This document shows positions 30,827-54,480 of a stretch of DNA of 64,000 nucleotides, one piece after another; within the stretch, counting starts at the first letter, position 1, and each line of letters starts with the position of its first letter. Where the stretch lies: assembly GCF_000204055.1 (NCBI RefSeq), contig NW_006768768.1, positions 1,118,071 to 1,182,070 on the forward strand, written 5' to 3'. Source of the stretch: Melampsora larici-populina 98AG31 (taxonomy: Eukaryota > Basidiomycota > Pucciniomycetes > Pucciniales > Melampsoraceae). The position numbers and the translations under genes were made by a program. A model generated the notes under the pieces. That model was not told the DNA's origin, made no database searches, and saw nothing but the letters and a program-made list of their open reading frames with translations.

Positions 30827-30847
30827 AGTGATAGATAGGAAGCGTTT

Positions 30848-34472: not shown

Positions 34473-34506
34473 AATAAACTTAGAAAAAAGTTTTTTATAT
34501 ATAGAA

Positions 34507-35091: not shown

Positions 35092-36085
35092 ATGGTCTTA
35101 CCAGGCGAGGAGGTTGGGCCCGAACCAAAGCGGAAAAGGAGAGAAAATGTCACTTCAAACTCGTCCATCGGCGCCAGGCTTGCCAATATGGAAGCTCTTG
35201 AAGAAGCGGATGCCAAAAACTTAGAGGCTCAGAGGGCTCGTCAGAACGCACCGGTTCCAGTGTTGCCCCCAATCAATCAAGCCGACTCAGATGAAGAGCC
35301 TGCACAACTGTATGATGCGTTCATGCCAGCTGATGTTCTACAAGATTTGGCTCAAGATGCGAACGCAGATCATCAAGTTATCAATTGAGCCAATTACTTT
35401 CGTAGTGTTACATACCAAGAACGTGCGCTCACGGAGGAACAAAACTGGAAAGAGGTGATACCGGCGATTTTCATTGCTTTCATGCCATGTAGCAGAACAA
35501 CATTCCAATGGGCAGACCCGGTTCTGTGGAGCCGTGACATGAATCAGCGGTGCAATTGTGCACGTTGGCAAAGGTCGACCGTCACCGTGGATACAATTGA
35601 TTGGTCCGGTGTGTTATCTACAGCATGTGGAATGTGTTTTATTTGTTAATCGCATGCTCATACTCAACTTTTTCTTTGAATTTTGTATGTATGTTAAAAT
35701 AGGACGTGCTAAGACTCCACTTGAAACTTGCCGGTGCACTCCGGATGTGGTTAGGCTTCTACGTCAAGGTTACATAGGAGGAACGCCTGTAAACCCCAGG
35801 ACCGCATATTCAATTCGATTGCTGCGATTCCATCATATATTGTGGAAGCACTGTAGCATCCGTATTGCACCTTTTGTCGAGGCAATCGAGGAGTATCTGG
35901 ATCCTCGAAGTGCACTTCTCTTGGTTGCAGGAAGCGATCAGGTAAGTAGGTTATTTGTAACAAACAAATTGGAATAAACAAACACCAATTAGTATGATTC
36001 CTCTGTCTGATGTATCCAACAGACTCGTGACTGGCGAAAAGGCTTTTCAGCCGCCGTGGATGTTTTCAGAGAGATGCTGCGACTA
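35092..36085 (+). pseudogene. KDZ-A transposase, N-terminal half
   Basis: ATG at 35092. A basic acidic-mixed leader (KRKRRENVTSNSS) is followed by ALTEEQNWKEVIPAIFIAFM, CNCARWQRSTVTVD and CRCTPDVVRLLRQGYIGGTP. This is the paired Cys pattern of CxC1-like clusters of KDZ transposases. Then come AYSIRLLRFHHILWKH, EYLDPRSALLLV and, after an intron at about 35940-36022, TRDWRKGFSAAVDVFREMLRL. It ends exactly at the duplicated TGCGACTA (36078-36085), where element B begins. An in-frame TGA (35386-35388) lies early in the gene; CGA to TGA would explain it. The continuation is at 54481. Confidence 0.85.
36078..36085 (+). repeat. Target duplication TGCGACTA, left copy
   Basis: It is repeated exactly at 54473-54480, on the other side of element B. 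In the KDZ-A gene it codes for part of the Leu-Arg-Leu run. Confidence 0.85.
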
Positions 36086-36252
36086 GAGAGCATTCGCGCA
36101 TCCACGGAAAAAAGAGCCGGCTCGAGAGTCCGGGCCGTAGTAGCGCAGCAATCCCCTTTGATAAATTATATAATTCCAAAGTGGCGTAATATGGAATACG
36201 GGACTTCTCACAAACCGCAACACCCAGAATTAATTCACCTCCGGACTTCCTA

Positions 36253-36413
36253 TACAGCTATCTAGAGCAGTGTACGAAGTGACCCTGTACCACTGCTCTA
36301 GACAGTGAAGAGGTCTATCGCCGATTATCGCCACTATCGCCGCTATCGCCGATTATTTGGCCTCAAAATCAACAAAAAACAACCAAGTCCCTCAATCGCA
36401 CATACCCCCGGTA
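36253..36413 (+). repeat. KDZ-2 left TIR
   Basis: Inverted copy of 45857-46019, including the GAGCAGTG hairpin (36263-36302) and the ATCGCC-rich segment (36316-36355). Confidence 0.9.
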
Positions 36414-36817
36414 CCGGCCATACGTCCGATTCGGGCTACTCGCCAGGTGACCCACCCCGACTTTGTCTACACCAAGGCTTGTGGCTTTCGATCAACTTTT
36501 GACTTGTTCCACTCAAAACTTCGAAGCGACCGATGGTTCTCAAGTTTAATCATATCAACCATCAACAACCAATCACATCCCTATCAAAAATCAACACTCA
36601 ACAATTGAAGATCAATCCTTTCATTAGACCAACAAGTGTTTTCACCTCTGACCGGATTCAGAGCCCTGATAACCTTGGGACCTTTGAGTAAGACAACCGG
36701 ATTTGTACCTCACTGGTCTGGCCGAACGAAGGATTGTGATATCAACTGTTCTGAACACCTCATCAACCTCATCTATCAACATCGAAAATCTATCCAAATA
36801 CCGCCCTTTGCATCAAG

Positions 36818-39800
36818 ATGCCCAGACTTCCCAGAGATCAAAAATTCTTCCCCAGTATAAAGCCAAAGCGACATCGAGACACCGAACCTGACCGTCATCA
36901 TATCCCCCACGATCGAGCCGTTAATCTCCTGCAGAACCTCGGAATTGGACCAGCTCGACCAGTTGAACCACCAGCTGAACTGGATAGACACGATGAACAC
37001 GAAGACGATTGGAACAATCAACCCGATGTCAACTATGACCCTCAAGATGACCCACCTGTCCCTACCCTTGATGGCGCGGCCGAACGACTAGCTGAGGCTG
37101 CAAGAGCGCAACACTATGCTCAAAAACGGCTCAACTTCGAAAAACAATGGGTTGCTCTTGCAGCTCCTGTCACCGCTGTATACCTTGAGCGTCAGCATGC
37201 AACCCAGAATTGGACAACTAGCATGTCATACCTAGCCAACCAGCCCGAATGCCGCTGTAATAACCAAACCACCCGGCTGATCGACCTCATTGACATGTAT
37301 GGTAAGTGGTGACAGCTTTCATTTTTTATTCTTACACTTATCATCTATAATTCTGTTTTACTAGGTCGATTAAGCAGTTACCAATTCACGTTTTGCAAGT
37401 GTTGTCCAGATGTCATCCGCCTTCTCTATGCAGGATACTTCGCAAGCTCACCTTCCCAACCACACACAGCCTTCTCGATTCCTCTCATTCAATTCCATAA
37501 CCGACTTTGGCAGACCTCGGCACTTTCAACAAGTTCCTTTATTGACGCTCTTGGAGGTTTCCTGGACGATCGATCAGCTTCACCCCTCTATGGCCAGCTT
37601 CGTAATGGAACAATTTGCAAGCGGGAACTTAGAAAACCTATAACCCATTCAATTGATCTTTACCGGCGAATATTATATCATCAAGAACTACTTTACATAG
37701 AAGGACTCGAGCTCAGTTTACTAGAAGTATATGCCGACAAGTGTTCTCGCTGCTTTGGACCCAGAGAAGGTGAAGTAAAAGTATCACCAGATGAACCTGA
37801 TGTCATCATATGCGCCGATGGCAACTTTCAACACCGTCATTACTCTTATGCCAGCAAAGACAACCCAGCCGAGCACGAATATCCCTCATCCTTCCTTTTA
37901 CCCTTGCAGATCACAAAGGTGGCCGACTTGTGTAAGAATACTGCTGCACTAGCCAGCGATATCAAGGTTTGTCGCTCACATGATTCCACAGATCTTGAAT
38001 ACTGCATCGGCTGATCTTTTGTTATCTACCTTGTCTCATTCTGCAGACTGCTTGCTCAGACTCTCACACAGCAGCAAATGACACCCGAAGCAGCGCCACC
38101 TGGAGGAAATCGTGTGATGATAATGGACTTTTTGCGTTTGCATGTCGACACGACCTCATGCTCAAGATGGCAAACCTCCATGAGGAATCTGAGAAGTGAG
38201 TAATTTATTTCCACCTCGAATTTTGATTTCCACATCTAACTCAGTCGATCTCAATGTGTAGATTGCATTATCCAGTCAGCATACTGGGATACTTTCTAGA
38301 ACAACTCCCCAATATCAAGTTTGGCGTTCTCTACGACATTGGGTGTCACCTTGATGCACACATCAAGAAGGTAAGAATTTCTGCCACTTGATTGTTTATT
38401 TTGTTTCTTCCGATTTATCAACTCACCTTTTTTATTACTGAATCAGAGGGGTCTCTTACCCAATTTTCAGACTCGATTGATGTTTGGGACAGCTGTGTTC
38501 CATGCATACGTCCACGAATGGGCATGCCAAATAGTTTACAATCCTCGATACAACAAGTACTGGGGTCTATCCGACGGTGAAGGTCTGGAGCGACTGTGGT
38601 CGTTCCTATCAGCCCTAGTAGCAGTGCTTCGGACATCAACCCGGTTACATCGATTTTGGGCGTTACACTGGCGCTGCAACTTTTACAACGAGAATCTAAA
38701 ATCAACCAGTGGTAAGTCTCTTCTTTTTTAGTTTCAAATCCCTCTTAGTACTAATTCTTTGGGAATGTTACAGGGAAATGGCTCCTCAGCAAGTTGAACA
38801 ACGCCAACCAGGTCAAGAAGGAAGCAAGCGAAGGACTATTGAATCTGTACACGCAACGCAACCCCTACGATCCTGACCGACAGTTTTATTCAGCTGATTT
38901 TCTCAGGGAGCAATGGATATTGGAAAGGAACGCACAAGCCAGCAAGAAGCATGCAGAAGAGCAACAAAAACTTGAACTGGGACGATTGCTATGTCTAGAA
39001 CAAGAGATTCAGAAGCTCTGGTATGCCGGTCTATAATCTATATAAGATACTGATGACTGATACTCACAATGATTGATTTAAAATTTGCAGGAATAGCCCT
39101 GTTCCTACTGCTGAGTATGAAATATCACGGGCACAAAGGTTGAATGAACTCCAGGAAAAAATCACGACACAGCGAAGAAAGGTTGGAGCAGCAGATGTGC
39201 TTGCATTGCTAACTAGTAAGTGTATATTTAAAATCAAATGACATGATAATTGTGACTGAAACTCGTTCTCAGGGCCTGAGCACGATGGCCTTCTAATGGT
39301 TTGGTACTGCATGCGAGATGTCCGATCTAGGTTGATTGCAATATTCAAGGAAAAGTTGCCCCTTAACCAATCTCAAGCTCATGGTCGAGATTCAAACTTA
39401 GGTAAGTACATGCTTCATCTCAAAATTATCCGTAGGAACAGTACTAACTAGAAATACAGGTGTTTCTGGCAGGACTGCTGTTCTTGCCTCAATACGAAAG
39501 CATGCTGCCGCTCTCGGCAAGGCCGTTGATCGCTACCAAGAACGCCTCAACACTTTTCGTCAAAAATTCCCTAATCGCCTTGCGTATCCTCCTGATATTG
39601 AGTACGCAACGCTGTTCCAGATTGCGCCGGATGATCCTTTTTGGAGTGAAGGTCTCTTCACCAATCACAATGAACCATGGGCAATCGATCCCTCGACTCA
39701 ATACGGAATGCGACAGCTTTCTTACCTTGAACGATCCGAAGAGGAACTGCGTAGAATTGGGTGGGAAGTACGACGTGAAATGCGATGGATCATCAACACT

Positions 39801-40397
39801 CGTACCCGAATCTCTCATCTTCTTCAATGTCTTCTCCATGGTATGTTGGAGCCCGGCTTACCTGACGTCGAAGCCATTCAACCCCTTCTCAACCATCCCA
39901 CCCTAAGTCATATTGACCCTCAGTCTCGCAAAATTTCGGCAATAAATCTCCTTCACACTCGATTGATACGACTTTTGCACCATATGCGGAAGTCATCTAA
40001 CAAATTTCAACAGGTGTTTCGAGGTACAGTAGCTCAAGCTGGTGATAATGGTCTTTCACAGGATTGGGGAGGACTTGGTAGGTTTGTGTCAAGTATTGGT
40101 GAACAAGGAATGTCGATGATTCCTGGATGTCTCTCATTGGCAGACAGATTGTGGCCAGTAGAACAACCAATAGAACAACGAGTAGAACTACCAGTAGACC
40201 AACCAGTAGCAGAAGATAGGAATGTTGTTGGAAATGAAGTCAATTTGGTTATTATTGAGGACGAAGAGGAAGATAAGGATGCAGATGAAGAGGAAGAGAT
40301 TGTCAAACAAACAGTATTGAGTGCAACTGAGAAAGCAGTGTCTTCAGCACTTGATAGGTTAGCATTGTATGATGATATGGAAGATGTTGAGTATTAA
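36818..40397 (+). CDS. KDZ transposase of KDZ-2
   Basis: Multi-exon gene from the ATG at 36818. Exon 1 has an acidic, Pro-rich region and CRCNNQTTRLIDLIDMYG; the next has CKCCPDVIRLLYAGYFASSP, giving the CxC1-like cysteine cluster. Later exons show CSRCFGPREG, IICADGNFQHRHY (first catalytic Asp), GVLYDIGCHLDAHIKK (second Asp) and YWGLSDGEGLERLWSFLSAL (catalytic Glu and the RW-type helix). A long helical region follows (REQWILERNAQASKKH; DDPFWSEGLFTNHNEPWAID), then an acidic Glu/Asp tail near 40255-40300. Introns are short GT-AG types, for example after 37302, 37967 and 38371. I see no frameshift or stop in the exons, so the transposase may be functional. It should cut and join the element's TIRs in the nucleus. 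Confidence 0.88.
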
Positions 40398-40632
40398 AAA
40401 ATGTACTTAGTTATTCTCTATTCAAAAACCTTGAGATATTTGTATGACATGCCTGAATGAGAATCAATTGAAGTGTTCAATAAGAATCCATTGAAGTGAA
40501 ACAGAATCTCATGTAGACTTTTATGCTTGATTCAGAATGCATCAATGTTAAAAAAACCCATGAAAAACTCATGACATGAAAATGTATAGTGTTCTAAAAT
40601 TGATAGTTTCATTGGTTTATGCATTACAGTTG

Positions 40633-42064
40633 CTTTAACCTGGCTTCTTGGAAGTTGCAGTAGAAGAAGATGTTACAATGAATCATGTTTAATCTTTTGA
40701 ACAGTGGGAGACACCAATAAACAACCAAGTTTATTGGTGAAAATGGACCTGAGGTGCAGGAGCGGTGCGGGAGTCGTGATTGGTGAAGTGTTATGTGGAT
40801 ATATTGATCCATGTACACGTGATTAGTGGTGTGTGGTGGTACCATCAGAAAGCCCTGACCTTGGCGGAGAGTTTGAGTCTACCACGGACCATTTTGGATG
40901 TAACTTGAAAAAGTTATTACAGATTGCATCCATGCGCGTCACTGAGGTGCGCGGGGAAGACATGAGGGGCTCTGGAGTTTTCCACACACATCATGAGTGT
41001 GATTGGGTTGTAAATTCAGAAAGCCCCAGCCAATGCGCAGAAATTGAGCCCTTACTGGAGTTTTTTTATTGAGAAATGAAAAAGTTATCAACATTTCCAT
41101 AGTTGCAAGTCATCACGCAGAAATAGCACATCTGGAGCGACGGTTCACCCCTCTTTTTTNNNNNNNNNNNNNNNNNNNNNNNNNNNNNNNNNNNNNNNNN
41201 NNNNNNNNNNNNNNNNNNNNNNNNNNNNNNNNNNNNNNNNNNNNNNNNNNNNNNNNNNNCTTTCTCACTTCTTGATCAAAACACTCCAGTAAGGGCTCAT
41301 TTTTTCCGCCTTGCTCAGGGCTTTCTGAATGTACTGTCCAATCACACTTTTGATAGGTGTGGCAATCTCCAGAGCCCCATATGTAGTCCCCGCGCACCTC
41401 AGTGACCCACATGGATGCAATGCGTAATAACTTTTTCAATTGACGTCCAAAATGGTCCGTGGTAGGCTCAAACTCTCCGCCAATGTCAGGGCTTTCTAAT
41501 GGTACCACCACAGATCACTACTAACATGTACGTGCAACAATATATCTACATAACACTTTACCAATCACTACTCCCATACCGCTCCCGCACCTCAGGTCCA
41601 TCTTCACTCAGAAACTTGGTTAACTTTTTACAAAACTCCTCAATAAAGACTCATTTTTTCCGCCTTTATTGGGGCTTTCTGAATGTACTGTCCAATAACA
41701 CTTTTGATAGGTGTGGCAATGTCCAGAGCCCCATATGTCCTCCCGCGCACCTCAGTGACCCACATGGATGCAATCCGTAATAACATTTTCAATCTACATC
41801 CAAAATGGTCCGCGGTGGGCTCAAACTCTCCGCCAATGTCAATGCCTTCTGATGGTACCACCACAATCCACTAATCACATGTACTTGGATCATTATATCC
41901 ACATAACACTTTACGAATCACTACTCCCGAACTGCTTCCGCACCTCAGGTCCATTTTCACTCAGAAAATTGGTCGTTTATTTCTGTCTGATGGTGTTTAA
42001 CAGATTAATCATGATTCATTGTAACATCTTCTTTTACTGCAACTTCCAAGAAGCCAGGTTAAAG
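40633..42064. repeat. Foldback element with long complementary arms, split by an assembly gap
   Basis: The left arm (40633 to about 41100) is the reverse complement of the right side. The ends are CTTTAACCTGGCTTCTTGG and CCAAGAAGCCAGGTTAAAG. The right side consists of two similar tandem modules (about 41272-41637 and 41640-42064), each with GGTGTGGCAATNTCCAGAGCC, CGCGCACCTCAGTGACCCAC and CACTCCCNNACNGCTNCCGCAC-like phrases. The arms exceed 400 bp, and the loop includes the run of Ns. No coding capacity. It is inserted between the KDZ-2 transposase and the HMG-like gene. Confidence 0.8.
41160..41259. other. Assembly gap of 100 N
   Basis: Exactly 100 undetermined bases in the loop of the foldback element. 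The round number suggests a scaffolding placeholder rather than a measured length. Confidence 0.95.
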
Positions 42065-42499
42065 GTGTCATATTACTGTTATTAATGCATTTATCTTTGC
42101 TGATCAACAGGGTTTTTATGTGCCCATTGTGTAGCTGTGTTTTTCATTTGTACATCTCAGGTTAATATTGCATCATGATTGATAATTTAAATCTTCCCCA
42201 GCATGATTTGAGAAACAAATGAATGGGCAAACAGTACCACATTTGTGGTAATGTGGTATCATTATCTGATGTCTTATACACATCAAAAATCGTGTCAAAA
42301 ACCCCTAATAGCCACCTAAGTGGCTTTTACATTACCCTTGTAGTCTTACAAAATAGGTTTAAACCACAATTTCAAATTTGGGAACAACAAGCTCTTGACT
42401 CCTCACACCTTGATTATACCTCAACACACCTTGCTGATACTTTCAGTACCTCCAACTTTACAATTTTTTCGTATTTCTTTCTTTTTGTTGTGACCAACA

Positions 42500-44557
42500 A
42501 TGGATTCATACCAGGCATCCCTCCCGAACTTAACTCAACTGGCCTATAGTCAAACTGATTATGACAACCTCGACTTCACGCAAGGCACGAATCTTGGCTT
42601 CAACAACCAGTCTTTCATCCAACCACCAACTCCTCCTTTCACTCAGTCGGTTCTGCCATATCAAAGCTCCCACTCTCAGTACCAGCAGACTTCACACCAA
42701 TCGTATCAGCAGCCTTCGCACCAATCTCAGTACCAGCACACTTCCCAAGTGGGTGCAAACTTTGGCCCTGGTAGTCAAACTACATACTGGAGTCCAGGGC
42801 CTCGTCAAGAACCTTTAGGCCAACTGCCACGTCCAACTTCATTAAATGCTGGACGTGGTGAACACACAAGCTCCGGACGTGGTGGACACGCGAATTCTTC
42901 TCTTCGGGCAAGAGGTCGCGGCCGTGGGCAAGGCCCAACTCGAACTCAACTAACTCGAATTCAGCAAACCCCCACTTCTACCGCAACTACTCCAACTGAG
43001 CCACCTCTATCAATGAAACAAATCCTCGACCAATTCCTCCCCAAATCGATTGTTACAATGCTTCCAGACAGCGCCAAGACATTCACTCCAATTGTCGCCA
43101 ATCAGCTTGAAGAAGTAATGAAGAAAGTTGTTGCAAAAGAAATCTTGGCTGCTGAACTGCGTGTTGTGGCGGCAAAGAATTGTAAAAAGTCATTCTCGCA
43201 AGCCGATGGTTCTTTTTTTATGGCTCTTGAAAATGACCTCGACATAATCAGAGTGATCTATTGTCTTGTCAGACGTGTTTCGCCAGAAAGGGCTTCAAGG
43301 CATATGTAAGTCTCATTTTCAAAAGCTTCACTTTTGATTACATCTGACTGCTTGAATCCCTTTAAAGTGGCGAATTCAAGGCCATGCGAGATGCGACTCT
43401 CTGGAACGGTTTTCAAGCAAGCCCTGAAGGGCAGGAAGTATATCGCACTCGTAGGTTATGCTCGCTTTGTCAACTTGTGGGATTCTTCTGATCTCACATT
43501 CAAACTCATCCCACGTAGACCGTGGAATTAAGGGCAAAGCAAACAGTGTACTCTCCGACTTATGGAACGAGAAGACTCTCGATGAAAAGCTGACCTACCA
43601 ACAATATGTTCGCAAATCCAAAAACCTCACATCGGTTTTGTTGGGAGCCGAAGGAGACGACTTGAACCAAACCACTGGAGACTCATCCGACTCTGTCGAA
43701 CCAAAATCAACTGGTGAGAATGGCTGGGTAGGTTCAGGTAGATCGCTCGCAAGCGCTCAACAGACTGCCGAATTGTGGCTCGCCGAAACCGAGGTGGAGG
43801 TATGTAAAGTCTCTCTACAACCTACCTTTCAATCCAGCCGCTTACCAGTTTTATCTATAAACGAAGGCAAAGAGGATTGCTTCTCTGACCAACAGCAACA
43901 TAGTGATACTTTGTGTATCATCACATCTGGGACCAAATGCGTTCCAGATGTTTGCTGGCTCTCCGAGGGGTCGATCCTGGCTAAAACTGAATCAGGAAAG
44001 GTACGGCTCTGCTTATTGCAACTGTGAGTTTCAGAGCTTCTGCACCGGGGTTGCAGTTGCCAAGCTCGACACGCCTGGCGTCAAGGCAAAGAAATCGATT
44101 GCTTACCCCAAACAAGACCAAGCTCGTGCAGCATTGAAGGGACTTCTTAGTAAGTGCCTCATCTCTTTATTATGTAACTCTAATCAATTCCAGTTTCACT
44201 GAAATCAGGACATCCCCATCGAAAACAGAAAAAACTTTTCCAACCAAAAACTACGCCTGGCCATGGATCAATTGTGAGGCTCGACTGCTCCACTGGGGTG
44301 CTAAAATTGTGCTACATCCAGAAGCTCAAACTGAGTTGGGTTTCGTCACTCAATTGAGCAAGAATCTCAATGACGAACAAGGTGACTGTATCTCTACCGA
44401 TATCACCAAAGGTTTGTTCGAGTTGGCTCAGGTTCCAAAGGATTCTTCGGGTCTGAAGAAACGGGCCCCAAAACGGAAGCGTGAACAAGAATCAGCGAGC
44501 GAAGAGGGTGATGAAGATGAGACCGATGAAGAGGAAAATGAAGATATCAATGAATAG
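42500..44557 (+). CDS. HMG-like hypothetical protein carried by KDZ-2
   Basis: Exon 1 (42500 to about 43307) encodes a Gln/Ser/Thr-rich leader with repeated QYQQTSHQS-type units and an RGRGRGQGPTR basic stretch. A helical region follows (SMKQILDQFLPKSIVTMLPD; FTPIVANQLEEVMKKVVAKE). The next exons give MRDATLWNGFQASPEGQEVY and VLSDLWNEKTLDEKLTYQQY, the paired W-N-x-F / L-W-x3-T-x2-E-K pattern of an HMG-box-like fold. The 3' part has CLISLLCNSN-type intronic frames, a FVTQLSKNLND segment and a Lys/Glu-rich acidic end. It parallels the gene at 21339-23825. Exon edges between 43300 and 44300 are approximate, and I cannot exclude a frameshift there. Function unknown. Confidence 0.6.
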
Positions 44558-44565
44558 TTTTCATC

Positions 44566-44860
44566 ATGACTTTCGCATATTTTTCAATCTCTTTTGTCTT
44601 CCTTTTTAACTCTAATTTCTTCCTTTTTTATGTTTTCATCTACTTCATCTTGTTATGTCTTCATTCGTGGTTACTACCACTTCGTTTCTTACTTTCTTTT
44701 TTCTTCTTTTTTACGTTATCATCTTCTTTACATTATCTTTGTTTTGATGTTTTCATCGTTCGTTCTTGTTCGTTTTTTAATGTCTTTTGTCTTCCTTTTT
44801 TCATCTTTACTTTCTTTTTGTTTCTTAATTTCATTTTATTTTTACTAATCCTTAGTTTCT
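44566..44860. repeat. Polypyrimidine low-complexity tract
   Basis: Nearly 300 bp of T/C-rich sequence built from variants of TTTTCATCTTCTTTT, directly downstream of the HMG-like stop. It opens long Phe/Leu/Ser frames that are not genes. Confidence 0.7.
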
Positions 44861-45281
44861 CCAGAATGCAGCTGCATTGTTCAATTCCAAACTGATATTT
44901 TGCCATTGAATCATTGAGTTAAGATACCAAGATAAAGCCAAAGTGGGACACGATAAAACCAAAGTGAGATACAAAAATAAAGACACTGAAATAAAAAATA
45001 CAATTCCTTTTAATTCAATCACTGCTAACATAGATATTGAGAGGACAAGCAGAGAAATAAAGTGAAAGGTGTGACTGAAAACTCCTTCATCATTCTGAAC
45101 AACATATCGAGATATAAAATAATCGATCTACTGCCTCCTTCATAAATAACCTAACAAACTACTACAACTACAAACTACAACAGATATTCAGGATGTTGAA
45201 GCTATTCAACATCACTAAAAGTAAACTTTGAGTCAGTGAGTCAATAGTGTATTAGTCTCAACAAATGAAAAGACCACAGGC

Positions 45282-45833
45282 TTACTCATCAAATATGTCA
45301 CACTCTTGAAGGTCTCTAGTGAGCACTTCAGCTTCGCCAAGATCCTTTAATACCTTGAGCATTGATTCCTTGCTCCATTTGAAACCCTCGAGGTCAAGTT
45401 TTTCCAAAGTCTTTACAATTCGATCGGAAACAGATGGAGATTGCTCGTAGGGTTGTGTTTTGACCGTGATCAAGTTTTGCCACTTTGGAATGAAGTTTGA
45501 CAATCCTGATGATTGTGACGATGTTGATGGAAGTTGAGATGGGGTTTGAGGTGGCGGTATTGATTGAGATTGAGATGGTGGTGGTGATCGGGGTGGGGAG
45601 GCCTCATCAGGTCCTTCGGTTTGCGAACCTCTTTCGACTCTCTTGACTCGGACCTCAGGCGTGTCAGGGATGTCACAATCGTGCTGGTACTCGAGGACAA
45701 TCATCATGAGGTGAGTGATTGATAAGATGTGGTTTGAATCGATGAGGTGGTGGAAGTCGAGAAGTGGTGATCGCAGAGGTTGAAGTTTGGGTTGCCCGGT
45801 CCGGACATCTGGGTAGCATGTACAGGTGGTCAT
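45282..45833 (-). CDS. Small hypothetical protein of KDZ-2
   Basis: A 183-residue single-exon frame from the ATG at 45833, starting just inside the right TIR. The N-terminus has a Cys pair (TTCTCYPDVRTG), followed by LLDFHHLIDSNHILSITHLM, a Pro/Ser/Gln-rich linker and a C-terminal helical region (DRIVKTLEKLDLEGFKWSKE; LKDLGEAEVLTRDL). No known domain. The frame is open further upstream into the TIR, which is probably the promoter. It could be a third element-encoded factor. Confidence 0.5.
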   Translation of the reverse strand: MTTCTCYPDVRTGQPKLQPLRSPLLDFHHLIDSNHILSITHLMMIVLEYQHDCDIPDTPEVRVKRVERGSQTEGPDEASPPRSPPPSQSQSIPPPQTPSQLPSTSSQSSGLSNFIPKWQNLITVKTQPYEQSPSVSDRIVKTLEKLDLEGFKWSKESMLKVLKDLGEAEVLTRDLQECDIFDE

Positions 45834-45856
45834 ATACTGTTTGATGGTACCGAGTC

Positions 45857-46019
45857 TACCGGGGGTTATATGAAAATCGAGGGACTTGGTCGTTTTTTGT
45901 TGATTTTGAGGCCAAATAATCGGCGATAGCGGCGATAGTGGCGATAATCGGCGATAGACTTCTTCACTGTCTAGAGCAGTGGTACAGGGACACTTCGTAC
46001 ACTGCTCTAGATAGCTGTA
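45857..46019 (-). repeat. KDZ-2 right TIR
   Basis: Inverted copy of 36253-36413 and close to the start of the small minus-strand gene. Confidence 0.9.
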
Positions 46020-46044
46020 CAAACCGCAACACCCAGAATTAATT
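46019..46044 (+). repeat. 26 bp direct repeat flanking KDZ-2
   Basis: ACAAACCGCAACACCCAGAA and the next six bases (TTAATT) follow the right TIR directly. They also occur at 36210-36235, 17 bp before the left TIR. This is longer than a usual target duplication. Confidence 0.8.
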
Positions 46045-46538
46045 GGTCCACATTTGATTTGACGGATTTGACAATCTCCCACTTCGCTATTGCACTCTCA
46101 CGAAAGATCCCGTCTTTCCGGAACGGTCGCCGCACTCAAACCGGACGTGATTAACGCCGCCGCAGGCTTGCTCGGTCAACCACTTCCGATCACCTCAACG
46201 GGCACGTCGCCTTTTCACTCGGCTTCCACAAAGACCCTTGATTTACGAAAATGGTCATGGGGGCGTACGAAAATCCAGATGTTGACCGTGCGGAGGGCCC
46301 AGCCACCTCATATAACCAGAACAGTGCTGTTGTATGTTAACCACTCACCCAAATCAGCGTCGCATTACCTCGGCAACGCGCGCGCCGAACCACATTGGAG
46401 ACTCATGACCTGCCCTACTGCCATTGGGAGCACAATTGACGAATCTACCAAGGGACCCTATATAGCTCCATATTGACCGGCCCTTAATGTTAGTGCTCTA
46501 ATCTATCAATTCCCCAGTAACTTTCCATTTCACAGGAC
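46045..46538. other. Element B subterminal region
   Basis: GC-richer than its surroundings. The open frame at 46090-46476 (+) has no domain features. Probably the 5' flank of the cysteine-rich gene. Confidence 0.35.
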
Positions 46539-46660
46539 AACTCCGCGAGTTATCATCATTCACATAGTTCATTTATTTCACCTCCGCGAGTTCTCATCTT
46601 ACTCATAGTTCATTTTCATTTCACAACCAACTCCGCGAGTTATCATCTTACAAACAGTTC
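46539..46660 (+). repeat. Triple CTCCGCGAGTTNTCATC repeat in the 5' flank of the Cys-rich gene
   Basis: Three copies start near 46541, 46582 and 46631, each followed by a CATAGTTCATTT-like phrase. They end about 10 bp before the start codon at 46672, so they may act as 5' UTR or promoter elements. CCGCG and the CTCCGCGAG half-palindrome are conserved. Confidence 0.75.
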
Positions 46661-46671
46661 CACTGATTGTC

Positions 46672-48551
46672 ATGCCTTCAGGCTCCAGAACCACACGATT
46701 GAACCCGATCAACCCCTATCAACCTTTGCCTGTCCCCTCCCGCAAAACCAAGCAAACTGGACTTATTTGCCAGTCAGCAAACTGCACCAAGAGGCCTACT
46801 CACTCCACGCTCTACTACCAACCACGGAACCAACCTAACGCTAAGCTGATTGGAATAAGGGTAACGTGACCAAACTAAAAGATGTCCACCACTGGATCAC
46901 ACTGAATCTTATATATTACAATCATCATCCTTACAGTGTCCACACGATTACAAGGCCTGTTATACACGTTTCTACCACCCATACCGAGTCGAAATCCTCG
47001 AACACAACGCCCAGTTACTCGCGATGGAAGTCGATCCACGGCTCATCGGTGGAATTGCTTCAAACACTACTTCCCAAACCTTTCCCCAAACTTCCCAAAC
47101 CACTTCTCAAACCACTTCTCAAACCAAACGCCGCACCACCAAAGTTGATTCATCTGCTCAATGCCAAGGCGTTAAAGGTCAATTTGCCACTGGTCATACG
47201 ATGCGGAAGAACAATTCATGCAATGCCAATGCCTGCCGCCATGTAAGTTTATTTCTCAGTGCAACCCGGTGATGTTAGATATCATGTAACTTACATATCA
47301 TATTTATTCTACATGTTCCATGTAGTGTTGCCAGGAACTCAATGATCAATTGGCTGGATGTGCACCTCACGGTGCCATGAATCGTGGGTCCCAGCGATCT
47401 GCTCGCAAGCAACCACTATCACCGAGCGGTCCTACAAGCTCATCGGCCACTCCCCTTACCCAAGCTGGTCGAACTTATTCACGCCTTCTCCTTCCGTCAG
47501 AATTTGCTAAGTTCAAAAGTATCACGATTCAAAAACAGGCAGACGAACGAACTCAAAGAGATAATGAACAGATTGCAAATAAACAAGTCACTCTGATGGT
47601 GTGGACCGGCACCGCGGTCAGTCTCAGTCTTACTTTTTTATTAACAAAAAGCAATGAACCAGGCTGATTTCATTTATTTTAGGGCTACCAATCTGGCTGC
47701 TGGGCGGGAGTGGTGTATGCACCACAATGGCCATTGGTTGCATTGAACAAATCCGAAGATCTTAGGAAGGTAGTTCACAAACATTTGGGTAATGACTGGA
47801 ATGGCAGTTTGCAGGTTTGGAGTGCGGAGAATAAAATATGGGTGAGAATTTCCTGCTGCAACTACCAAAACCAATGTAAAATAACCCGGATTCAAATCGT
47901 TGTTTGTTTCAGCTCAATGTTCCATTTGGAATGATCCATCAGTACCCAACAAACTGTCGAAAACTTCTTGTACTGTTTCCAGACGTCGACCCGAGCCAGT
48001 GCGAAAACCTCGATCACCACAAGGCCACAGTCTCATCAAGCAACAAATCCGCGATGACTATCACCAAACACCTCAACCCGTCACCTTTCAAAGGTTCTCC
48101 TGTCGCTAGATCTTCTCCTTCACCCCCTGAACAACCTCAGGCATCTTCTTCCAATAAGCGTATCCGCCTCCTCACATCTACACCTGATCCGAGTGACGAC
48201 GAAAGCACCGAAGGCATCCCTACTGGACGCTTGGGGAAGTGGCCCTGTGCATGTGTCATGCGCGACATGGAGAAGTTCTTAATTCAGTCAAAGAAGCCGA
48301 AAGTGACCATACCAGCCGCTTGGAATTCACTATTCAAAGCCGCTGGTTACAAGTACGCTAAATCCACTGCGTCTCGTTACCGTCGCTGGCTTGAAGCAAT
48401 TGACACTGAACGGTTGGCTCGATATGTTTCGGCAAATGGCGACAAGCGGGTTAAGCACGGGGTTCGATACTTTCACAAGGAATGGCTAGCTACCAAAAAC
48501 GTTGGGGAAACTGAAGAACAACCAACCCCATCCAAGCGTGTCAAGCTATGA
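46672..48551 (+). CDS. Cysteine-rich passenger protein of element B
   Basis: Five exons with clean GT-AG junctions and all phase 0: 46672-46860, 46937-47242, 47326-47616, 47683-47841, 47913-48551, giving 527 residues. Exon 1 has LICQSANCTKRP; exon 2 begins CPHDYKACYTRFYHPYR and ends with CQGVKGQF and CNANACRH; exon 3 continues with CCQELNDQLAGCAPHG. Together these make a Cys/His cluster likely to bind zinc. The middle (LMVWTGTA; SGCWAGVVYAPQWPLVALN) is hydrophobic. The last exon holds a Pro/Ser linker, a basic RLLTSTPDPS region, GRLGKWPCACVMRDMEKFL and a helical DNA-binding-like end (SRYRRWLEAI; KRVKL). I do not recognise the family. It lies 850 bp upstream of the alpha-kinase in the same direction. 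No stops or shifts are seen. Confidence 0.75.
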
Positions 48552-48840
48552 GTACTCCCAGATGAATTCTATCTCTCCCTTTTCTAACCTTGTATAAAAT
48601 TTTCCTTTCCAACCGTTCATTTAAATAATAAGTTTTTGTATATATAATTTTTTCAATTTTTCAGCATCTATATGTCTTCAATTTCTCTGTCTTCTCCTTA
48701 TGTCTGCCGTTCGGACTTTTTGATGTATGCTATGCCACCTATTAATTAAGCTATGTCCAGTAATACCATCAAGTATGCAGCAACTAGTTGAAGTCGAATG
48801 ACTTCTTTTGCGATTTACATGTGCCAAAGTAATCTAAAAA

Positions 48841-48906
48841 GTGATTGGCGTGACCAATCACACTCTTTCTTGCTCATTAACTGAGTCTTAATGGGCAAGA
48901 AAGAGT
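48841..48906. repeat. Two adjacent hairpins downstream of the Cys-rich gene
   Basis: GTGATTGG...CCAATCAC (48841-48861) is followed by 19 bp arms ACTCTTTCTTGCTCATTAA / TTAATGGGCAAGAAAGAGT (48862-48880, 48888-48906) with one mismatch and a 7 bp loop. Confidence 0.8.
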
Positions 48907-49203
48907 TATTGACCGTCATGAATAGTATAGAATCGATCACAAAGACTCAAAGAATTCTATTAATTGATCGGAAATGACTTCAGACAAGCACATCAATTAG
49001 TAATATTATGTTGGGAATTCTTTCAATCATTTTACCATGGGGTAACATGAATAGAGGTGACGGAATGATAAGAAAATCATGAGAACAAAACCTAAATGAG
49101 GGGTCTAGCTCGCGGAAAAACATCCTCATTATGTGGAACGTGTGTAAATTGGAAAGTAAGGCCAAACTAATCCGGCCAAACGATGGTAATACGATAATAG
49201 AAT

Positions 49204-49238
49204 TATCGATCACCCTCGATCACCCTCGATCACCCGCT
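49204..49238. repeat. GATCACCCTC triple repeat
   Basis: Three consecutive GATCACCCTC/GATCACCCGC units about 165 bp upstream of the alpha-kinase start, a candidate promoter element. Confidence 0.65.
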
Positions 49239-49400
49239 TTCGCGCTATTCATACTATTCCGCAAATGAATCTCTTGAGTATGTCATCTACTATAAAATGT
49301 CCTACACTTACACACTTATAAAGTTGTATCAATATCTCCTTCACGTTGTCACGTTGCTCAATTATTAAACCATCCACACATCACATTTATCTTGATTATT

Positions 49401-50691
49401 ATGCCAGATATAGCTGCTACCTTCAGTGATGATGACCCGCCGGCTTTTGATAATTGTCGCAAGGGAACCCCCAATACTGATACCAGTGCCGAAACACCTG
49501 ATCAACCTTCATCAACATCCATCAGCTTGTCTTCCTTGGCAGATGTGGTTTATGATCAACTTACGGAAACCAAGCCGCCCATCACTTCAACAACTCTAAC
49601 TCTGCCTCGTCGTAGAGCCGTTCCGGCGTCTCGCAATGGCAACATCTTTCGTGATGTGGAAGTCTCCGAAGAAGAAATTGTCACGTTGTCAAGACAGATT
49701 CGTGACACCAATTTCATGTTTGCACCAAACACCAGATCTGTCCGTGGTGGCTGGGACTACCAAGTTATTGCATTGGTTCTTGAGGGCGACCCTTTCACCT
49801 TCAATCCAGCGGGCGGCGACTATCGAATGAAAGAACGTGTATGCACATTCCGGTGTGATCCATTCCAGCAACACTATTTTACTCGGGATTCAAATTCTTG
49901 GATTCAGCACAATATGACCATCCTAGGCGACACTGTTCCTAAATCGATGATCGCCAAACAGCATACGGAGTGGACCTCGAGGCCTAACTTAGCGCGATCT
50001 CATGCTTTGGAGCGAGTCAAGTCCAACCTTTACGTAGCAGATTTGTTGAAGGTCTTTGTGCAGGACTTGGAAAATGTGTCTAAATCGAAGCGTGGCCAAA
50101 CTGCTCGCATCGCCGCAGAAGACATGCATATGCAAAGTTGTAACTTAAAGGTAATTTTTTTTGCTCTTGAAAAATACTTAGTTCAGTTCTAAAAGTGTTT
50201 TTTTGTGTATCCAGGTACCACCAAACAGCCTACTTAAGACGTTTGGTCGTACTTTGTCTGACGAGTCCGAATGGCTTTTGATTGATGCACCCCACGACTC
50301 AGACAATGTGCGCTATCTACACCCTTACAAGTTCAGGTGCGACCACGAGGACAAGTGGAGCAATTTAGTGCATGCTTTAGCCCATTTCGCGTATCACCGG
50401 ACTGGAGCTCTTTCGTTATTGAGCCAAATTGATTGTGACAAATCAGGTAATTTATCGAACCTGATATGTTTTACCAGAGGGTAAGTAGTATCACTTTGGA
50501 CTCCACCATTCATTCATGCTTACTAAATCATTGTCAGGTATCCGCACGTTGGTATACCGGGAACCGACATGGACGAAGAAGTCCACATGGCATTTGTGCA
50601 TTTCAAAGGTGAACACAAGTGCAACCCAATTTGTCGCACTCTTGGCCTGTACAATGTACAAACGGGCTATCCAGCCAATCGGTCCGACTAG
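49401..50691 (+). CDS. Alpha-kinase domain protein, passenger of element B
   Basis: Atypical protein kinase of the alpha-kinase (MHCK/eEF2K) family, expected to phosphorylate Ser/Thr. Three exons: 49401-50150, 50215-50480, 50538-50691, giving 389 residues. The N-terminal 75 residues are a Ser/Thr/Pro-rich leader. The N-lobe spans GWDYQVIALVLEGDP, MKERVCTFRCDPF and VPKSMIAKQ, where a Lys sits in the nucleotide-binding position. SNLYVADLLKVFVQDLE follows. The C-lobe has HALAHFAYHRTGALSLLSQI then DCDKSG, equivalent to the family's AFSHF...DLQG segment. The end, MAFVHFKGEHKCNPICRTLG, is the zinc-binding H-x-C-N-x-x-C signature plus LGL. The canonical DLQG is altered (IDCDKSG), so activity is uncertain. 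Splicing is clean and there is no stop. It lies between the Cys-rich gene and the convergent transposase. Confidence 0.82.
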
Positions 50692-51463
50692 CTGGCCTTT
50701 TATATTTTGCATACGAGATTTACTACTTCATGTTCAATTTGTTTCCTTTTTGATCGCATTATTCAAATTGTCTTCTTCATGTTATTTTTGTTGTCTTTAC
50801 GATGGCCATCTTTGAATTGTTCATGTTCTTTTTGTTTTCTTTACGATGATATTATTTAAATCATATTCTAGTTAATATTGTTTTCATTATGTTACTTTTG
50901 TTTTCATTACGATGGCAGCATCTAATTTAATGTTACTTTTCGCGCTCTTTATGATGACATTGGGTTTCATAACAATTCAATACTTCTACGTTTGTAGTTA
51001 TGTTATTACGTTTGTTGGGACATCACTTTTCACCCAGTGTATCTTAGATAGAGAGTGCATTACACTGAAAAACAATCACAGGGAGACACAAAATGAGAAA
51101 ATGAGAAATTGTGATATGATACATTAAACGGGCAAGATCGGATACAAATTACCCTATCATTGTATGGTCTAGAGCTGATGCTACAATTTGAATCATTATA
51201 CGATATTTGAGTCAGTTCTTTTTAGTATTTTAATGGTTGGGAAAGTTTCAATTTCAAAGTGGACAGTGGTAGCAAAGACATGAAGATCATAAGAGCTTCC
51301 GAAACAAACGGATTGTTGGTACCAAAGTTCATGACGAGTTACAAAATGAATCCAGTGGTTTGTTCAATGTTCATGATCAACTTGAACAGAACTCAGAACT
51401 CCTGTCAAAAAGGATTCAAAGTCGTGAGCTGAGTACAAGACATTAATAGATAACGAGGTACAC
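50692..51463. other. T-rich spacer with degenerate repeats
   Basis: The 3' flank between two convergent genes. About three to four diverged copies of TTCATGTTATTTTTGTTTTC-like bases followed by TTTACGATGG lie at about 50775-50960. No gene is seen; the frame at 50912-51127 (+) is AT-driven. Confidence 0.45.
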
Positions 51464-53698
51464 CTACAATGCGACAGTGCTGTAATGGATATTGCCTACG
51501 AATTTTACCTTGTCGCGCTTGCGTAGTTTTTCCTCAAGTCGTACATTATGGAGTCGGATCATTTCATCTAAAAAGAAGTTGTACCTGACAGGGTGCATAC
51601 CACGGCACATTGAATCAAAGCGGCCGAACCAAGCGTTTTCAATCTCAGCAGCTGATGCGTTGAACTTCCAGCCGTCAGCATTCTTTAATTCCGGGAATTT
51701 ATCCGGATCATTATTGAGTCTGCAGGTGGCGTGAGTCTCTTTGTGAGACTTGATGTGGAAGGTATCCACCGGGAGGAGAGTGTTTCGAAAGAATTCAACA
51801 TCATCCGTGTTGGTGCGGATGTGTGAATATAATCCACACGCGTTATCGTAAAATATGACTTGAGGAATTTCATCGGGGAAAAGCTCCTTGATCCATTCCT
51901 GCAAGGAAAAAGTCCGAGTTACTTTTAATTCGCAAAGAGAATCGAAATGATCACTAACTTTTACTTTGGTCACAGATTCAGATTTGTAAAAAGTTTTACG
52001 CGCAATGATGATGCCACAGGGTGCTACCATTAGCTGTTCGTTGTGAGTACGGGCACGTGAAAGTACAATTCTCTTGGTTCCTTTGTTGGCAGCGGCTCCT
52101 CCGTCTCTTGCAGCTTCATGCTCGCGATCAGTGACCTCACACAATAATAATTCTGCTTCAGTTAAGGTTACCTCCCCGGTTTCTGCATCTAATAATTCGC
52201 TGGGATCGATCTGCATTTGAGTGTGAGGTCTCTTGAATTTGCGAGGTAAGCCGAAAAGACTGCCGTTCCTTGCTGCAAATTCTGCATACGCCGCTTCGTG
52301 AGCTGGATCGCCGCAGGTCTTCGATCCCTCGGCAGATACGGGTCTCACACAAGGTTGAGCTTGACAACACCCTTTGAGGATGGCATGATGTTCGGAGCAA
52401 TACCTATGTTTGACTTTTTCGAGGTGTTGGTCACAATAGATGTCAGTGGTGGTGGGATCGAGAGCTTTGACTGGCTCTTCGGTTACACTGCAGCACCAGT
52501 GTCCCATGGTTATGCCATCTGTGACTAGCGCCCGCATGACTGGAATGATTGACATGAATGAGATTGGAGGACGAAAGCAATATAGATGTGAAAGAAGGGC
52601 CTACCTCGAGCATGACCTCCGGTGAGAGGAATCTCTTCGACTTCAGTACAAAGGGTGCAGGCGTGGCCAAAGTAAGGTGATCCTTCGATTTGATTCCATG
52701 CAGTAGCTTGCTCCATAGCTGAGAAGAACCGTCGATCATCTCCTCCTGCTGCATCACCCTTCAATCTGAGACCTCGAGTATTGTAGGTCCGCATCAACCG
52801 GTGGATGTCCAGGCCAAGTGAACACACCTTGGGACTCAGCCAACGTTGAAAGCGGTCGGATGGAAAAGCGTTTGAATATATGGCATCGGGTGATGCGTGC
52901 GTGTTGTTGTAAGAATTGACAATGTTGTAAACGGAAACCCTGATTGTGACATATAAGAGGTTTAGCCTTTTGTAATAAGGATGCATGGAGTAAAACATAC
53001 TGTGCCAGCATCTGAAGATGATTGAAGTGATCGGCGGCTTTATGAGTCATGAAGTAGTGCTGTGACACCTGGAAGTGATTAGTTGGCTGCCCTTCTTCTG
53101 GGGTGTAGTAATCGCGGAAAGCTTCACGTCGGACATAGCACGGTGTATAAGTTGACTTGCATTCTGGAAAAAATACAAATGTTTGGTAAGCGGTTGGCCA
53201 ATATTGAATATTGGTAAGCTCACTTCGGCAATATGAAGTAAAGTATTGTACACTGTCGATGCCATTGATGTCGATCAGGTACGCATAAACTTGCTCTCGA
53301 TTCTCAAGTGCGAGGGCCACGCCGTCATTGTCGCAAGTGAAACAATTTTCGGTAGGGGGTTCAAACGTGTGCTCGGTAATTGTGAAGGCATCTGGTTCGT
53401 GTATTTCTGGGGGAATACCTTGAGAAAAGAATTGTGAGGGGTTGTGTAGGCAGTTCGGAATGTCATCATAGATCAGATTCCACAATCGCGCCCAAACCGC
53501 AGGGGTTTGAGCGCTGTCCAGACAGCGTGCTAGAAACTCAATGGGTGCCTCGGTGGGTGAGGGGCCATAAGTTTCTCTGGTCCTTTGCAAGAAATCAGCA
53601 GAAAGGGAGGCGAGCGTGCTAAACTGGCTGACAGTGAGACTGTTGTAGGTGTTGGGGTATTTTTGGGAGAGACTGGCGACAAGATCTTTGAGGAACAT
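51464..53698 (-). CDS. CxC5/CxC6-type KDZ transposase of element B
   Basis: Three exons on the minus strand: 53698-53001, about 52939-52610, and about 52540-51464. The first encodes the N-terminal region with TENCFTCDND and a following Cys (CxC5-like). The second has DIHRLMRTYNTRGLRLKGD and CTLCTEVEEIPL. The third opens VTDGITMGHWCC and continues with CDQHLEKVKHRYCSEHHAIL, CCQAQPC and TCGDPAH, the CxC6-like cluster. The KDZ core then shows RTHNEQLMVAPCGIIIARKT, QVIFYDNACGLYSHI (Asp), VDTFHIKSHKETHATCRLNN and AAEIENAWFGRFDSMCR (Glu), ending HPVRYNFFLDEMIRLHN. These match the CxC6-associated KDZ proteins of basidiomycetes. It looks intact and is the obvious candidate for moving element B. It is only distantly related to the CxC1-type transposases nearby. 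Confidence 0.85.
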
Positions 53699-54472
53699 GT
53701 TTAATTGTGTATGTTGGGATGAATATTTTTTGAACCAAAATGACTACGCTTATTAGCAGACAAATATTTGATGGCGTGCTGGGTTGAAGAAGATCGTTGG
53801 GTGGGTGCGCTTATTTTAACTAACTGATTATAAGAGCTGGTATGGATTGCAGTTTTTATAATTGCATGGTGTCTCTAGGAGGGATACAATTTGCTATAAC
53901 ATCATGTTAATATGCGCGACCATCTTGAAAGGCAAGCATATCAACACGCAATTTTTAAAGTAGTAAGCGAGTAAGCACGGTAACGGTGTTGATCGTGCAG
54001 GCAATCGCCATGAATGTTTGAGCGGATCAAAGCATCAAACTTCAAGCCGGGTATATCCTCCGTGATGCACAGTTTATTGGTTTGTAACAATTGCTGTCCC
54101 TGCCGGTTGGCCACTTCTCTCAGCAGGTTCTCGGTCTGCATTATCCAACCTTGCACTTTGTGCTTCATCGGGGTGGTTTCGTTTGACTGAGCCGGCATGC
54201 TCGGCTGGCACGAGCAATGAGCGATAATTTGTAATGTCGGAGACAGTGCCGAGGTGAGTTGGTGTATTTCAAAAAGAGTCTTGGGAGAAGAATCTTTTCG
54301 CCGCAATTGTCTCACACAGGAGACAAAAAGGTGTGTGAGACTAACCGAGGGAATGTGCTACGGTACTGCTGTCCAGATGTGTACGGTACTGCTGTCCAAA
54401 TTAGTCAATGTCACAGGACCGCGGACTGGCTCGTCTACAGGCTCATTTTTACGTGGCCCAGCGTGTTCTCTG
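53699..54472. other. Right subterminal region of element B
   Basis: It holds the transposase promoter and the right terminus (about 54440-54472). The frame at 53941-54315 (-) has no recognisable domain. Confidence 0.45.
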
Positions 54473-54480
54473 TGCGACTA
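54473..54480 (+). repeat. Target duplication TGCGACTA, right copy
   Basis: Matches 36078-36085. The codon after it (54481) continues the KDZ-A frame. Confidence 0.85.

What the first reader, a model, noticed from the sequence alone, without database searches (positions are those of the whole stretch)
36078..54480. A KDZ transposase gene is cut in two by an 18.4 kb transposon, and the frame rejoins exactly
The KDZ fragment ending at 36085 and the one starting at 54481 look like two separate degenerate genes, but both sides of the intervening 18,387 bp carry TGCGACTA. Codon CTA ends at 36085 and codon GAA starts at 54481 in the same frame. The virtual junction (VFREMLRL + EDEMTN) aligns without gaps to the intact KDZ-3 protein over 34 residues. 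The interval's ends are imperfect inverted repeats (GAGAGC... and CAGAGA..., about 24 of 33 matches). This establishes element B as one mobile unit and shows its content moved together.
Basis: seen in the sequence. Interest (0 to 1): 0.93.

Follow-up and report, generated by a model that had tools for sequence, protein, structure and literature searches.

The report
Rust transposon carrying a variant kinase
In a poplar rust fungus, one jumping gene has landed inside another and itself contains a third; the middle one belongs to a little-described class that repeatedly carries a kinase-like gene and a cysteine-rich gene together with its putative transposase.

Summary
TGCGACTA flanks 36086-54472, the host KDZ frame rejoins at the single copy, and a paralogue elsewhere in the genome (contig C210) is an empty site with one TGCGACTA and unbroken protein. 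Two corrections: a 100-N gap makes 18,387 bp inexact, and 9.8 kb of the interval (36236-46036) is a second, CxC1-type KDZ transposon nested inside, almost identical to a copy 237 kb away. So "content moved together" is shown only for the ~8.6-kb remainder, element B. B's putative transposase has CxC5 and CxC6 clusters; its ends are CAGAGA...CTCTC, its target duplication 8 bp. Four further complete elements of this class were found, one predicted from the end motifs and then confirmed by its 8-bp duplication. All five hold the same three genes in the same order: CxC5/CxC6 protein, alpha-kinase-like gene with altered active-site motif, cysteine-rich gene. Genome-wide, 43 of 52 such kinase loci and 35 of 48 third-gene loci lie within 14 kb of a CxC6 gene (rotation means 6.9 and 5.0); yet 69 of 132 CxC6 loci show neither. 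Roles of the three proteins are inferred, not shown.

The parts
36078..36085 (.). target duplication of element B, left copy (TGCGACTA)
54473..54480 (.). target duplication of element B, right copy
34835..36085 (+). 5' part of the interrupted CxC1-type KDZ transposase gene (CxC1 domain in 35543-35977)
   Evidence: PF18802 E 1.6e-26; 80% to L011
54473..55542 (+). 3' part of the interrupted KDZ gene (KDZ domain in 55249-55542)
   Evidence: PF18758 E 6.4e-21; L011 match 54473-54945
36086..54472 (-). element B as it stands, including the nested element C; about 8.6 kb without C
54438..54472 (-). head terminus of B (CAGAGAACACGCTGGGC...), on the side of the CxC5/CxC6 gene
36086..36120 (+). tail terminus of B (GAGAGCATTCGCGC...)
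51464..53743 (-). B's putative transposase gene: CxC5 (in 52754-53743) and CxC6 (in 51464-52600) clusters, candidate D-D-E residues
   Evidence: PF18718 E 1.9e-14, PF18721 E 4e-18
49401..50691 (+). alpha-kinase-like gene, three exons modelled; equals the annotated M. larici-populina protein MELLADRAFT_59902 over all 389 residues of the model
   Evidence: (PF02816 E 3.1e-10)
46672..48551 (+). third gene: cysteine-rich protein of unknown family, five exons modelled, 527 aa
   Evidence: (44-48% to four M. americana proteins over 98%)
36236..46036 (+). nested element C, a CxC1-type KDZ transposon; sister copy at C4:917655-926352
36755..40397 (+). KDZ transposase gene region of element C (CxC1 in 37313-38014, KDZ in 38375-38731)
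   Evidence: PF18802 E 7.9e-25; PF18758 E 7.6e-22
36236..36413 (+). left terminal inverted repeat of C
45857..46018 (-). right terminal inverted repeat of C, lacking its outer 18 bp
36228..36235 (.). AATTAATT, target duplication of C, left copy
46037..46044 (.). AATTAATT, target duplication of C, right copy; 46019-46036 before it repeats C's left flank 36210-36227
41160..41259 (.). 100-N assembly gap inside C

Best explanation
Element B (36086-54472 minus the nested 36236-46036, about 8.6 kb) is a cut-and-paste DNA transposon of a CxC5/CxC6 class. Its CxC5/CxC6 protein is the likely D-D-E transposase; it would recognise the unequal ends CAGAGA(A)..CG and GAGAG.AT.CG, excise the element and insert it at an 8-bp staggered cut. 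It did so inside a CxC1-type KDZ gene. A CxC1-type KDZ transposon (C) also sits inside B, near its tail. Complete elements of B's class carry a fixed gene set: transposase, alpha-kinase-like gene, cysteine-rich gene. Shown: insertion, termini, target duplication, nesting, gene set and order. Inferred: that the CxC5/CxC6 protein is the catalyst; that the cysteine-rich protein binds element DNA as a nuclear helper; and that the kinase-like protein regulates transposition or host silencing, perhaps without ordinary kinase chemistry.
For: Empty paralogous site with single TGCGACTA. Five complete elements with CAGAGA/GAGAG ends: B TGCGACTA; C28:786530-795912, 9,383 bp, GAAAACAC; C27:409227-417008, 7,782 bp, ATAGGAAG; C5:2539579-2548293, 8,715 bp, 9-bp GACAAATAG; C17:1228550-1236569, 8,020 bp, found by pattern and then shown to have CTATGTAA on both sides. 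All 5 of 5 hold CxC6, kinase-like and third gene between the ends (C17). Genome-wide: 42 of 132 CxC6 loci have a PF02816 match within 8 kb against 3 of 150 CxC1 loci (rotation mean 4.9, maximum 13 of 1,000); 43 of 52 P0046-like kinase loci and 35 of 48 third-gene loci within 14 kb of a CxC6 (rotation means 6.9 and 5.0, maxima 15 and 11 of 1,000). A D, a D and an E suited to a catalytic triad are among 28 invariant columns in 23 of 23 CxC5/CxC6 proteins. C.
Against: 69 of 132 CxC6 loci show neither companion gene by these searches. Of the 12 relatives read, C2 and C24 lack a kinase and C97 and C24 the third gene in the DNA held (matches to both lie just beyond the stretch held at C24), and only 3 (C5, C27, C28) showed both ends. 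Of the end-motif matches, 9 of 14 heads and 8 of 11 tails are not within 15 kb of a listed CxC6. The KDZ profile PF18758 matches only 2 of 23 CxC5/CxC6 proteins even at E 10 (best 0.0055), and a profile comparison with two KDZ fragments of the window found nothing (0.13% probability), so transposase activity and KDZ kinship rest on motif and association. The third gene has no Pfam match. The structure models of the kinase-like and third proteins were poor (mean pLDDT 30.5 and 35.4). One of five target duplications is 9 bp.
Confidence: 0.86

Rival explanations
1. The whole 18.4 kb, with C already inside, jumped into the KDZ gene as one composite unit.
For: B's ends and its target duplication enclose everything; nothing dates the two insertions against each other.
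Against: C has its own inverted repeats and 8-bp duplication, and an almost identical free-standing sister (0 differences in 4,895 bp, 1 substitution and 1 gap in 3,467 bp), so one of the two C copies arose very recently; no second copy of B's body was found.
Confidence: 0.25
2. The kinase-like and third genes are passengers or captured host genes that contribute nothing to transposition, spread only because they lie between the ends.
For: Kojima 2025 (PMC12730594; abstract, passages and section 4.1 seen) argues that TET/JBP genes are passed passively between transposons and says that all TET-bearing IS3EU families have the TET/JBP gene between transposase and alpha-kinase genes; 69 of 132 CxC6 loci show neither companion; the kinase gene's orientation differs between sister elements.
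Against: All five complete elements keep both genes in the same order, and the third gene is opposite to the CxC6 gene in 35 of 35 nearby loci, at protein identities down to about 23-30%; decay would be expected for passengers.
Confidence: 0.35
3. Not one insertion: two degenerate KDZ genes that share TGCGACTA by chance or by rearrangement.
For: The paralogue is only 80% alike, so it is not an allele.
Against: Exact frame and sequence continuity across the single copy in L011; four further elements with the same kind of ends and duplications.
Confidence: 0.02
4. The CxC5/CxC6 open reading frame is not a transposase; another element (for example a Copia retrotransposon) moves it.
For: Suggested for Pleurotus ostreatus, where CxC5/CxC6 frames co-occur with Copia and no KDZ-type transposon was found within expected distance (PMC7641404, passages).
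Against: Here CxC5/CxC6 elements have their own ends and 8-bp duplications, and no reverse transcriptase domain was found in the 18 frames of the interval given to Pfam, 9 of them B's (not all frames were given).
Confidence: 0.08

Closest known systems
KDZ (Kyakuja-Dileera-Zisupton) DNA transposons
   Same: 8-bp target duplication as in Zisupton and a Dileera family (PMC12730594 passages); zinc clusters that Pfam names as KDZ-associated; invariant D-D-E candidates
   Different: CxC5+CxC6 architecture; PF18758 catalytic profile not found in B's frames and in only 2 of 23 aligned proteins; ends CAGAGA...CTCTC; no TET/JBP match in B
IS3EU elements of rust fungi
   Same: carry an alpha-kinase gene in opposite orientation to the transposase (PMC12730594 section 4.1)
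   Different: 6-bp duplications and TAYGG..CCRTA ends against 8 bp and CAGAGA..CTCTC here; no TET/JBP match between the two genes in B; sequences of IS3EU kinases or transposases were not compared
CxC5/CxC6 insert in the MSH4 gene of Pleurotus ostreatus
   Same: an insert of 6,792 bp with a CxC5/CxC6 reading frame that knocked out a gene (PMC7641404 passages)
   Different: its authors found no KDZ-type transposon near it and suspected involvement of Copia; ends and companion genes of that insert were not compared here
alpha-kinases (MHCK-A, eEF2K, TRPM7)
   Same: PF02816 match E 3.1e-10, zinc motif H-x-C-N-x2-C, an I-A-K lysine
   Different: [QNS]-[LIV]-D-C-D in place of D-[LI]-Q-G (canonical motif recalled) in 12 of 12 genomic copies whose motif was read and in 2 M. 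americana proteins

Membership tests
KDZ transposon superfamily (element B) | KDZ catalytic domain PF18758 | tested here: inconclusive
   2 of 23 CxC5/CxC6 proteins match at E up to 10, best 0.0055; profile comparison with two short KDZ fragments negative
KDZ transposon superfamily (element B) | KDZ-associated cysteine cluster | tested here: met
   CxC5 and CxC6 above cut-off
KDZ transposon superfamily (element B) | 8-bp target duplication | tested here: met
   4 of 5 elements exactly 8 bp, one 9 bp
Kyakuja | 7-bp duplication, CA..TG ends without inverted repeats (two families in PMC12730594) | tested here: not met
   8 bp; ends CAGAGA..CTCTC with imperfect inverted repeats
IS3EU | 6-bp duplication and TAYGG..CCRTA ends (PMC12730594) | tested here: not met
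alpha-kinase family (B's middle gene) | alpha-kinase profile PF02816 over cut-off | tested here: met
   40.9 bits against 21.3
alpha-kinase family (B's middle gene) | canonical D-[LI]-Q-G motif (recalled; invariant catalytic Asp766 and nucleotide-binding Gln758 of MHCK-A from passages) | tested here: not met
   [QNS]-[LIV]-D-C-D in 12 of 12 genomic copies read
alpha-kinase family (B's middle gene) | alpha-kinase fold | tested here: inconclusive
   model too poor to use, mean pLDDT 30.5
alpha-kinase family (B's middle gene) | kinase activity | not testable with these tools
   needs protein
KDZ transposon (element C) | KDZ domain, inverted repeats, 8-bp duplication | tested here: met

The most novel reading that the evidence does not exclude
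CxC5/CxC6 elements are a DNA-transposon group of their own, not an appendage of KDZ or Copia, with a three-gene core: a D-D-E transposase, a conserved cysteine-rich nuclear helper, and an alpha-kinase-fold protein whose active site has been rewired (D-x-Q to Q-x-D) into a regulator of transposition or silencing. Part of the known expansion of alpha-kinases in rust fungi would then be transposon genes, not host signalling genes.
Probability: 0.4. Interest if true: 0.75.

Novelty: new variant of a known kind. Interest (0 to 1): 0.6.

Why it matters
Pfam knows CxC5 and CxC6 only as cysteine clusters 'associated with' KDZ transposons, and in oyster mushroom an insert bearing one was tentatively linked to a Copia element (PMC7641404 passages). 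Here they sit in elements with defined ends and duplications, which can be searched for in any basidiomycete genome. Alpha-kinases are called highly expanded in rusts (PMC4469406, one passage) and appear in a wheat-rust enrichment table (PMC5295586, one passage); in this genome at least 42 of the 147 PF02816 matches scored lie within 8 kb of a CxC6 gene, so gene-family counts used to infer rust biology include transposon genes. A kinase-fold gene kept in a transposon with the same altered motif in every copy read is a direct, testable puzzle.

Tried and rejected

Limits of the counts. PF02816: 150 of 243 candidates scored, 147 matches, and B's own kinase gene is not among them, so these are lower bounds. 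CxC1: 150 of 307 candidates scored. CxC6: all 134 candidates scored, 132 matches. The 48 third-gene and 52 kinase loci were made by merging 106 and 75 matches (83 of 189 and 89 of 89 candidates scored). The 12 relatives read were taken from the 44 matches before the kinase gene was recognised: the first eight relatives of the list and four further down; others were not read.
Full report
WHAT WAS CLAIMED. A KDZ gene is cut at 36085/54481 by an 18,387-bp element with 8-bp duplications, and the frame rejoins.

OBSERVATION. It is in the sequence as described. The best independent proof is in the same genome: contig C210 carries a paralogue of the interrupted gene in which the two flanks are adjacent, with one TGCGACTA and an unbroken protein (80% identity over 34835-36085 and over 54473-54945). 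It is a paralogue, not an allele. In a test of all 33,154 exact 8-mer pairs 500-30,000 bp apart in the window, only three had better inverted ends than B: two pairs in the internal repeats of the nested element and another transposon at 3992-6413. The interval contains a 100-N gap at 41160-41259, so its true length is unknown.

ORGANISM. The kinase-like gene model of B is identical over 389 residues to MELLADRAFT_59902 of Melampsora larici-populina 98AG31, so the window comes from the poplar rust or something extremely close. The genome held is 98.3 Mb in 243 contigs.

NESTED ELEMENT C. Window 36236-46036 is a second transposon: CxC1-type KDZ gene, inverted repeats of about 180 bp at 95%, and a sister at C4:917655-926352 of 8,698 bp with target duplication CTTCGATG. 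The two copies have no difference in the first 4,895 bp and one substitution plus one gap in the last 3,467 bp; the middle differs (an internal repeat block that includes the N gap). In the window copy the last 18 bp of the right end are replaced by a copy of the 18 bp to the left of C's duplication, with the spacing to an 8-bp AATTAATT duplication unchanged. This is unexplained; a repair event after a one-ended cut is my guess. B without C is about 8,586 bp. The order of the two insertions is not resolved.

ELEMENT B. On its minus strand B encodes a protein with CxC5 and CxC6 clusters. An alignment of 22 homologues from rusts, mushrooms and metagenomes (of the 44 found) plus B's own 378-aa frame has 28 invariant columns, among them a D, a D and an E placed as in a D-D-E transposase (23 of 23; the choice of the three is mine), but the KDZ profile PF18758 is found in only 2 of 23 and weakly, and a comparison with two KDZ fragments of the window was negative. 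I therefore call B a CxC5/CxC6 element and leave KDZ membership open.

OTHER ELEMENTS OF THE CLASS. By DNA, B's body is unique (46045-50500 has no other match apart from one short inverted piece of itself); the CxC5/CxC6 gene has many diverged relatives (44 matches, itself included, best relative 69%). I read 12 of these loci. Three have both ends with direct duplications: C28:786530-795912 (9,383 bp, GAAAACAC), C27:409227-417008 (7,782 bp, ATAGGAAG) and C5:2539579-2548293 (8,715 bp, GACAAATAG, 9 bp). The head begins CAGAGA and the tail GAGAG in all of these. In B and C28 the first 35 bp of the two ends match at 24, in C27 only at 15 and in C17 at 18, so the inverted repeat is short and imperfect. 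As a prediction, I searched the genome for the head pattern (14 matches; reversed-pattern control 3) and the tail pattern (11 matches; control 2). One head and one tail bracket a CxC6 gene at C17:1228550-1236569 (8,020 bp); its flanks then proved to carry CTATGTAA on both sides. Of all matches, 5 of 14 heads and 3 of 11 tails are within 15 kb of a listed CxC6 gene; the rest are not.

GENE SET. Between the ends of all five complete elements lie the same three genes in the same order: CxC5/CxC6 gene, alpha-kinase-like gene, cysteine-rich third gene (for B, C5, C27, C28; for C17). In the 12 relatives read, picked, whose listed matches to them fall in the CxC5/CxC6 part (51449 on), and before the kinase was recognised, a kinase-like gene is present in 10 and the third gene in 10; C2 lacks the kinase, C97 the third gene and C24 both in the DNA held, though C24 has matches to both just beyond the stretch held. 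Genome-wide, 42 of 132 CxC6 loci have a PF02816 match within 8 kb, 39 of them 0-6 kb downstream, against 3 of 150 CxC1 loci; random rotation of the kinase positions gives a mean of 4.9 and a maximum of 13 in 1,000. With the M. americana kinase-like protein P0046 as query, 43 of 52 loci are within 14 kb of a CxC6 (42 downstream), and with the third protein P0050, 35 of 48 (33 downstream, 35 of 35 on the opposite strand); rotations give means of 6.9 and 5.0 and maxima of 15 and 11. Against this, 69 of 132 CxC6 loci show neither gene, 51 have a kinase within 8 kb downstream, 35 the third gene within 14 kb downstream on the opposite strand, and 23 both; decay, divergent subfamilies and the limits of the search can all contribute. 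In M. americana one kinase-like protein and one third-gene protein are listed on contigs of the same length, 475,979 bp, a hint that the linkage is older than the species.

THE KINASE-LIKE GENE. The model scores 40.9 bits against the alpha-kinase cut-off of 21.3. It keeps an I-A-K lysine and the zinc motif, but where alpha-kinases have D-[LI]-Q-G (recalled) all 12 genomic copies whose motif was read, and two M. americana proteins, have [QNS]-[LIV]-D-C-D. Passages of PMC4876393 and PMC9921739 call Asp766 of MHCK-A invariant and catalytic, and Gln758 and Lys645 important for nucleotide binding. A uniform change across copies points to a selected, altered active site, not to decay, but activity is untested. 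The gene lies on either strand: B and its closest relative in the tree, C8, differ, and so do C4 and C27 (tree support 1.0 and 0.99), while the third gene keeps its strand; C28 has two copies on opposite strands. The third protein has no Pfam match and conserved cysteines, and ends in (A/S)KRVKL in four of the five sequences that reach the end (and the window model), which resembles a nuclear localisation signal (recalled). Its structure model is poor; only a small helical C-terminal part reaches moderate confidence.

HOW IT MOST LIKELY WORKS. Shown: insertion, ends, duplication, nesting, gene set. Inferred: the CxC5/CxC6 protein binds the ends through its zinc clusters and cuts and joins with an 8-bp stagger; the third protein assists in the nucleus; the kinase-like protein modulates transposition or host silencing. 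The rival that the two genes are mere passengers remains open.

LITERATURE. Kojima 2025 (PMC12730594; abstract, passages and section 4.1 seen) reports alpha-kinase genes in IS3EU elements of rusts, with 6-bp duplications and other ends; 'alpha-kinase' occurs twice in its main text, in that connection. The Pleurotus paper (PMC7641404, passages) describes CxC5/CxC6 inserts without assigning them to an element of their own. Alpha-kinases in rusts: PMC4469406, PMC5295586 and PMC4150398 (one or two passages each). My searches for 'KDZ' with 'alpha-kinase' (1 paper), 'alpha-kinase' with 'rust fungi' and 'transpos' (2), 'alpha-kinase' with 'Melampsora' (4), 'alpha-kinase' with 'DNA transposon' and 'fung' (2), any of 'CxC5', 'CxC6', 'KDZ' (265, 15 listed) and two of 'IS3EU', 'alpha-kinase', 'transposon' (57, 12 listed) showed me no report of this gene set. 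The founding KDZ paper (Iyer et al. 2014, recalled) is not held, so it may contain more.

Noticed in passing
3992-6413: Another DNA transposon of 2.4 kb with 8-bp duplication AGTGGACC and 29 of 35 matching inverted ends.
   Followed up: no
28500-34816: A DIRS/Ngaro-like retroelement: weak tyrosine-recombinase match (29783-30847, below cut-off), RNase H match (30848-34456) and split direct repeats at 99% (28500-28650 = 29144-29294; 28838-29146 = 34508-34816), ending just before the interrupted KDZ gene.
   Followed up: no
36210-36235 and 46019-46044: The nested element's right tip (18 bp) is replaced by a copy of its left flank with spacing unchanged; mechanism unexplained.
   Followed up: partly
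16134-20273: Ty3/Gypsy-type pol with chromodomain in one open frame of 1,379 codons, minus strand.
   Followed up: no
L026 (C28:790513-791341 + and 791625-792098 -): One CxC5/CxC6 element holds two kinase-like genes on opposite strands.
   Followed up: partly
genome: Several exact head motifs (for example C3:107338, C10:48961, C47:156820, C103:112640) without a listed CxC6 gene nearby, possibly non-autonomous or decayed relatives; tails at C20:108493 and C72:431824 lie 12 and 19 kb from a CxC6 gene and may mark further elements.
   Followed up: no
61016-61216: A further CxC1 match on the minus strand (C4:1179086-1179286), so the window holds at least three CxC1-type KDZ genes.
   Followed up: no
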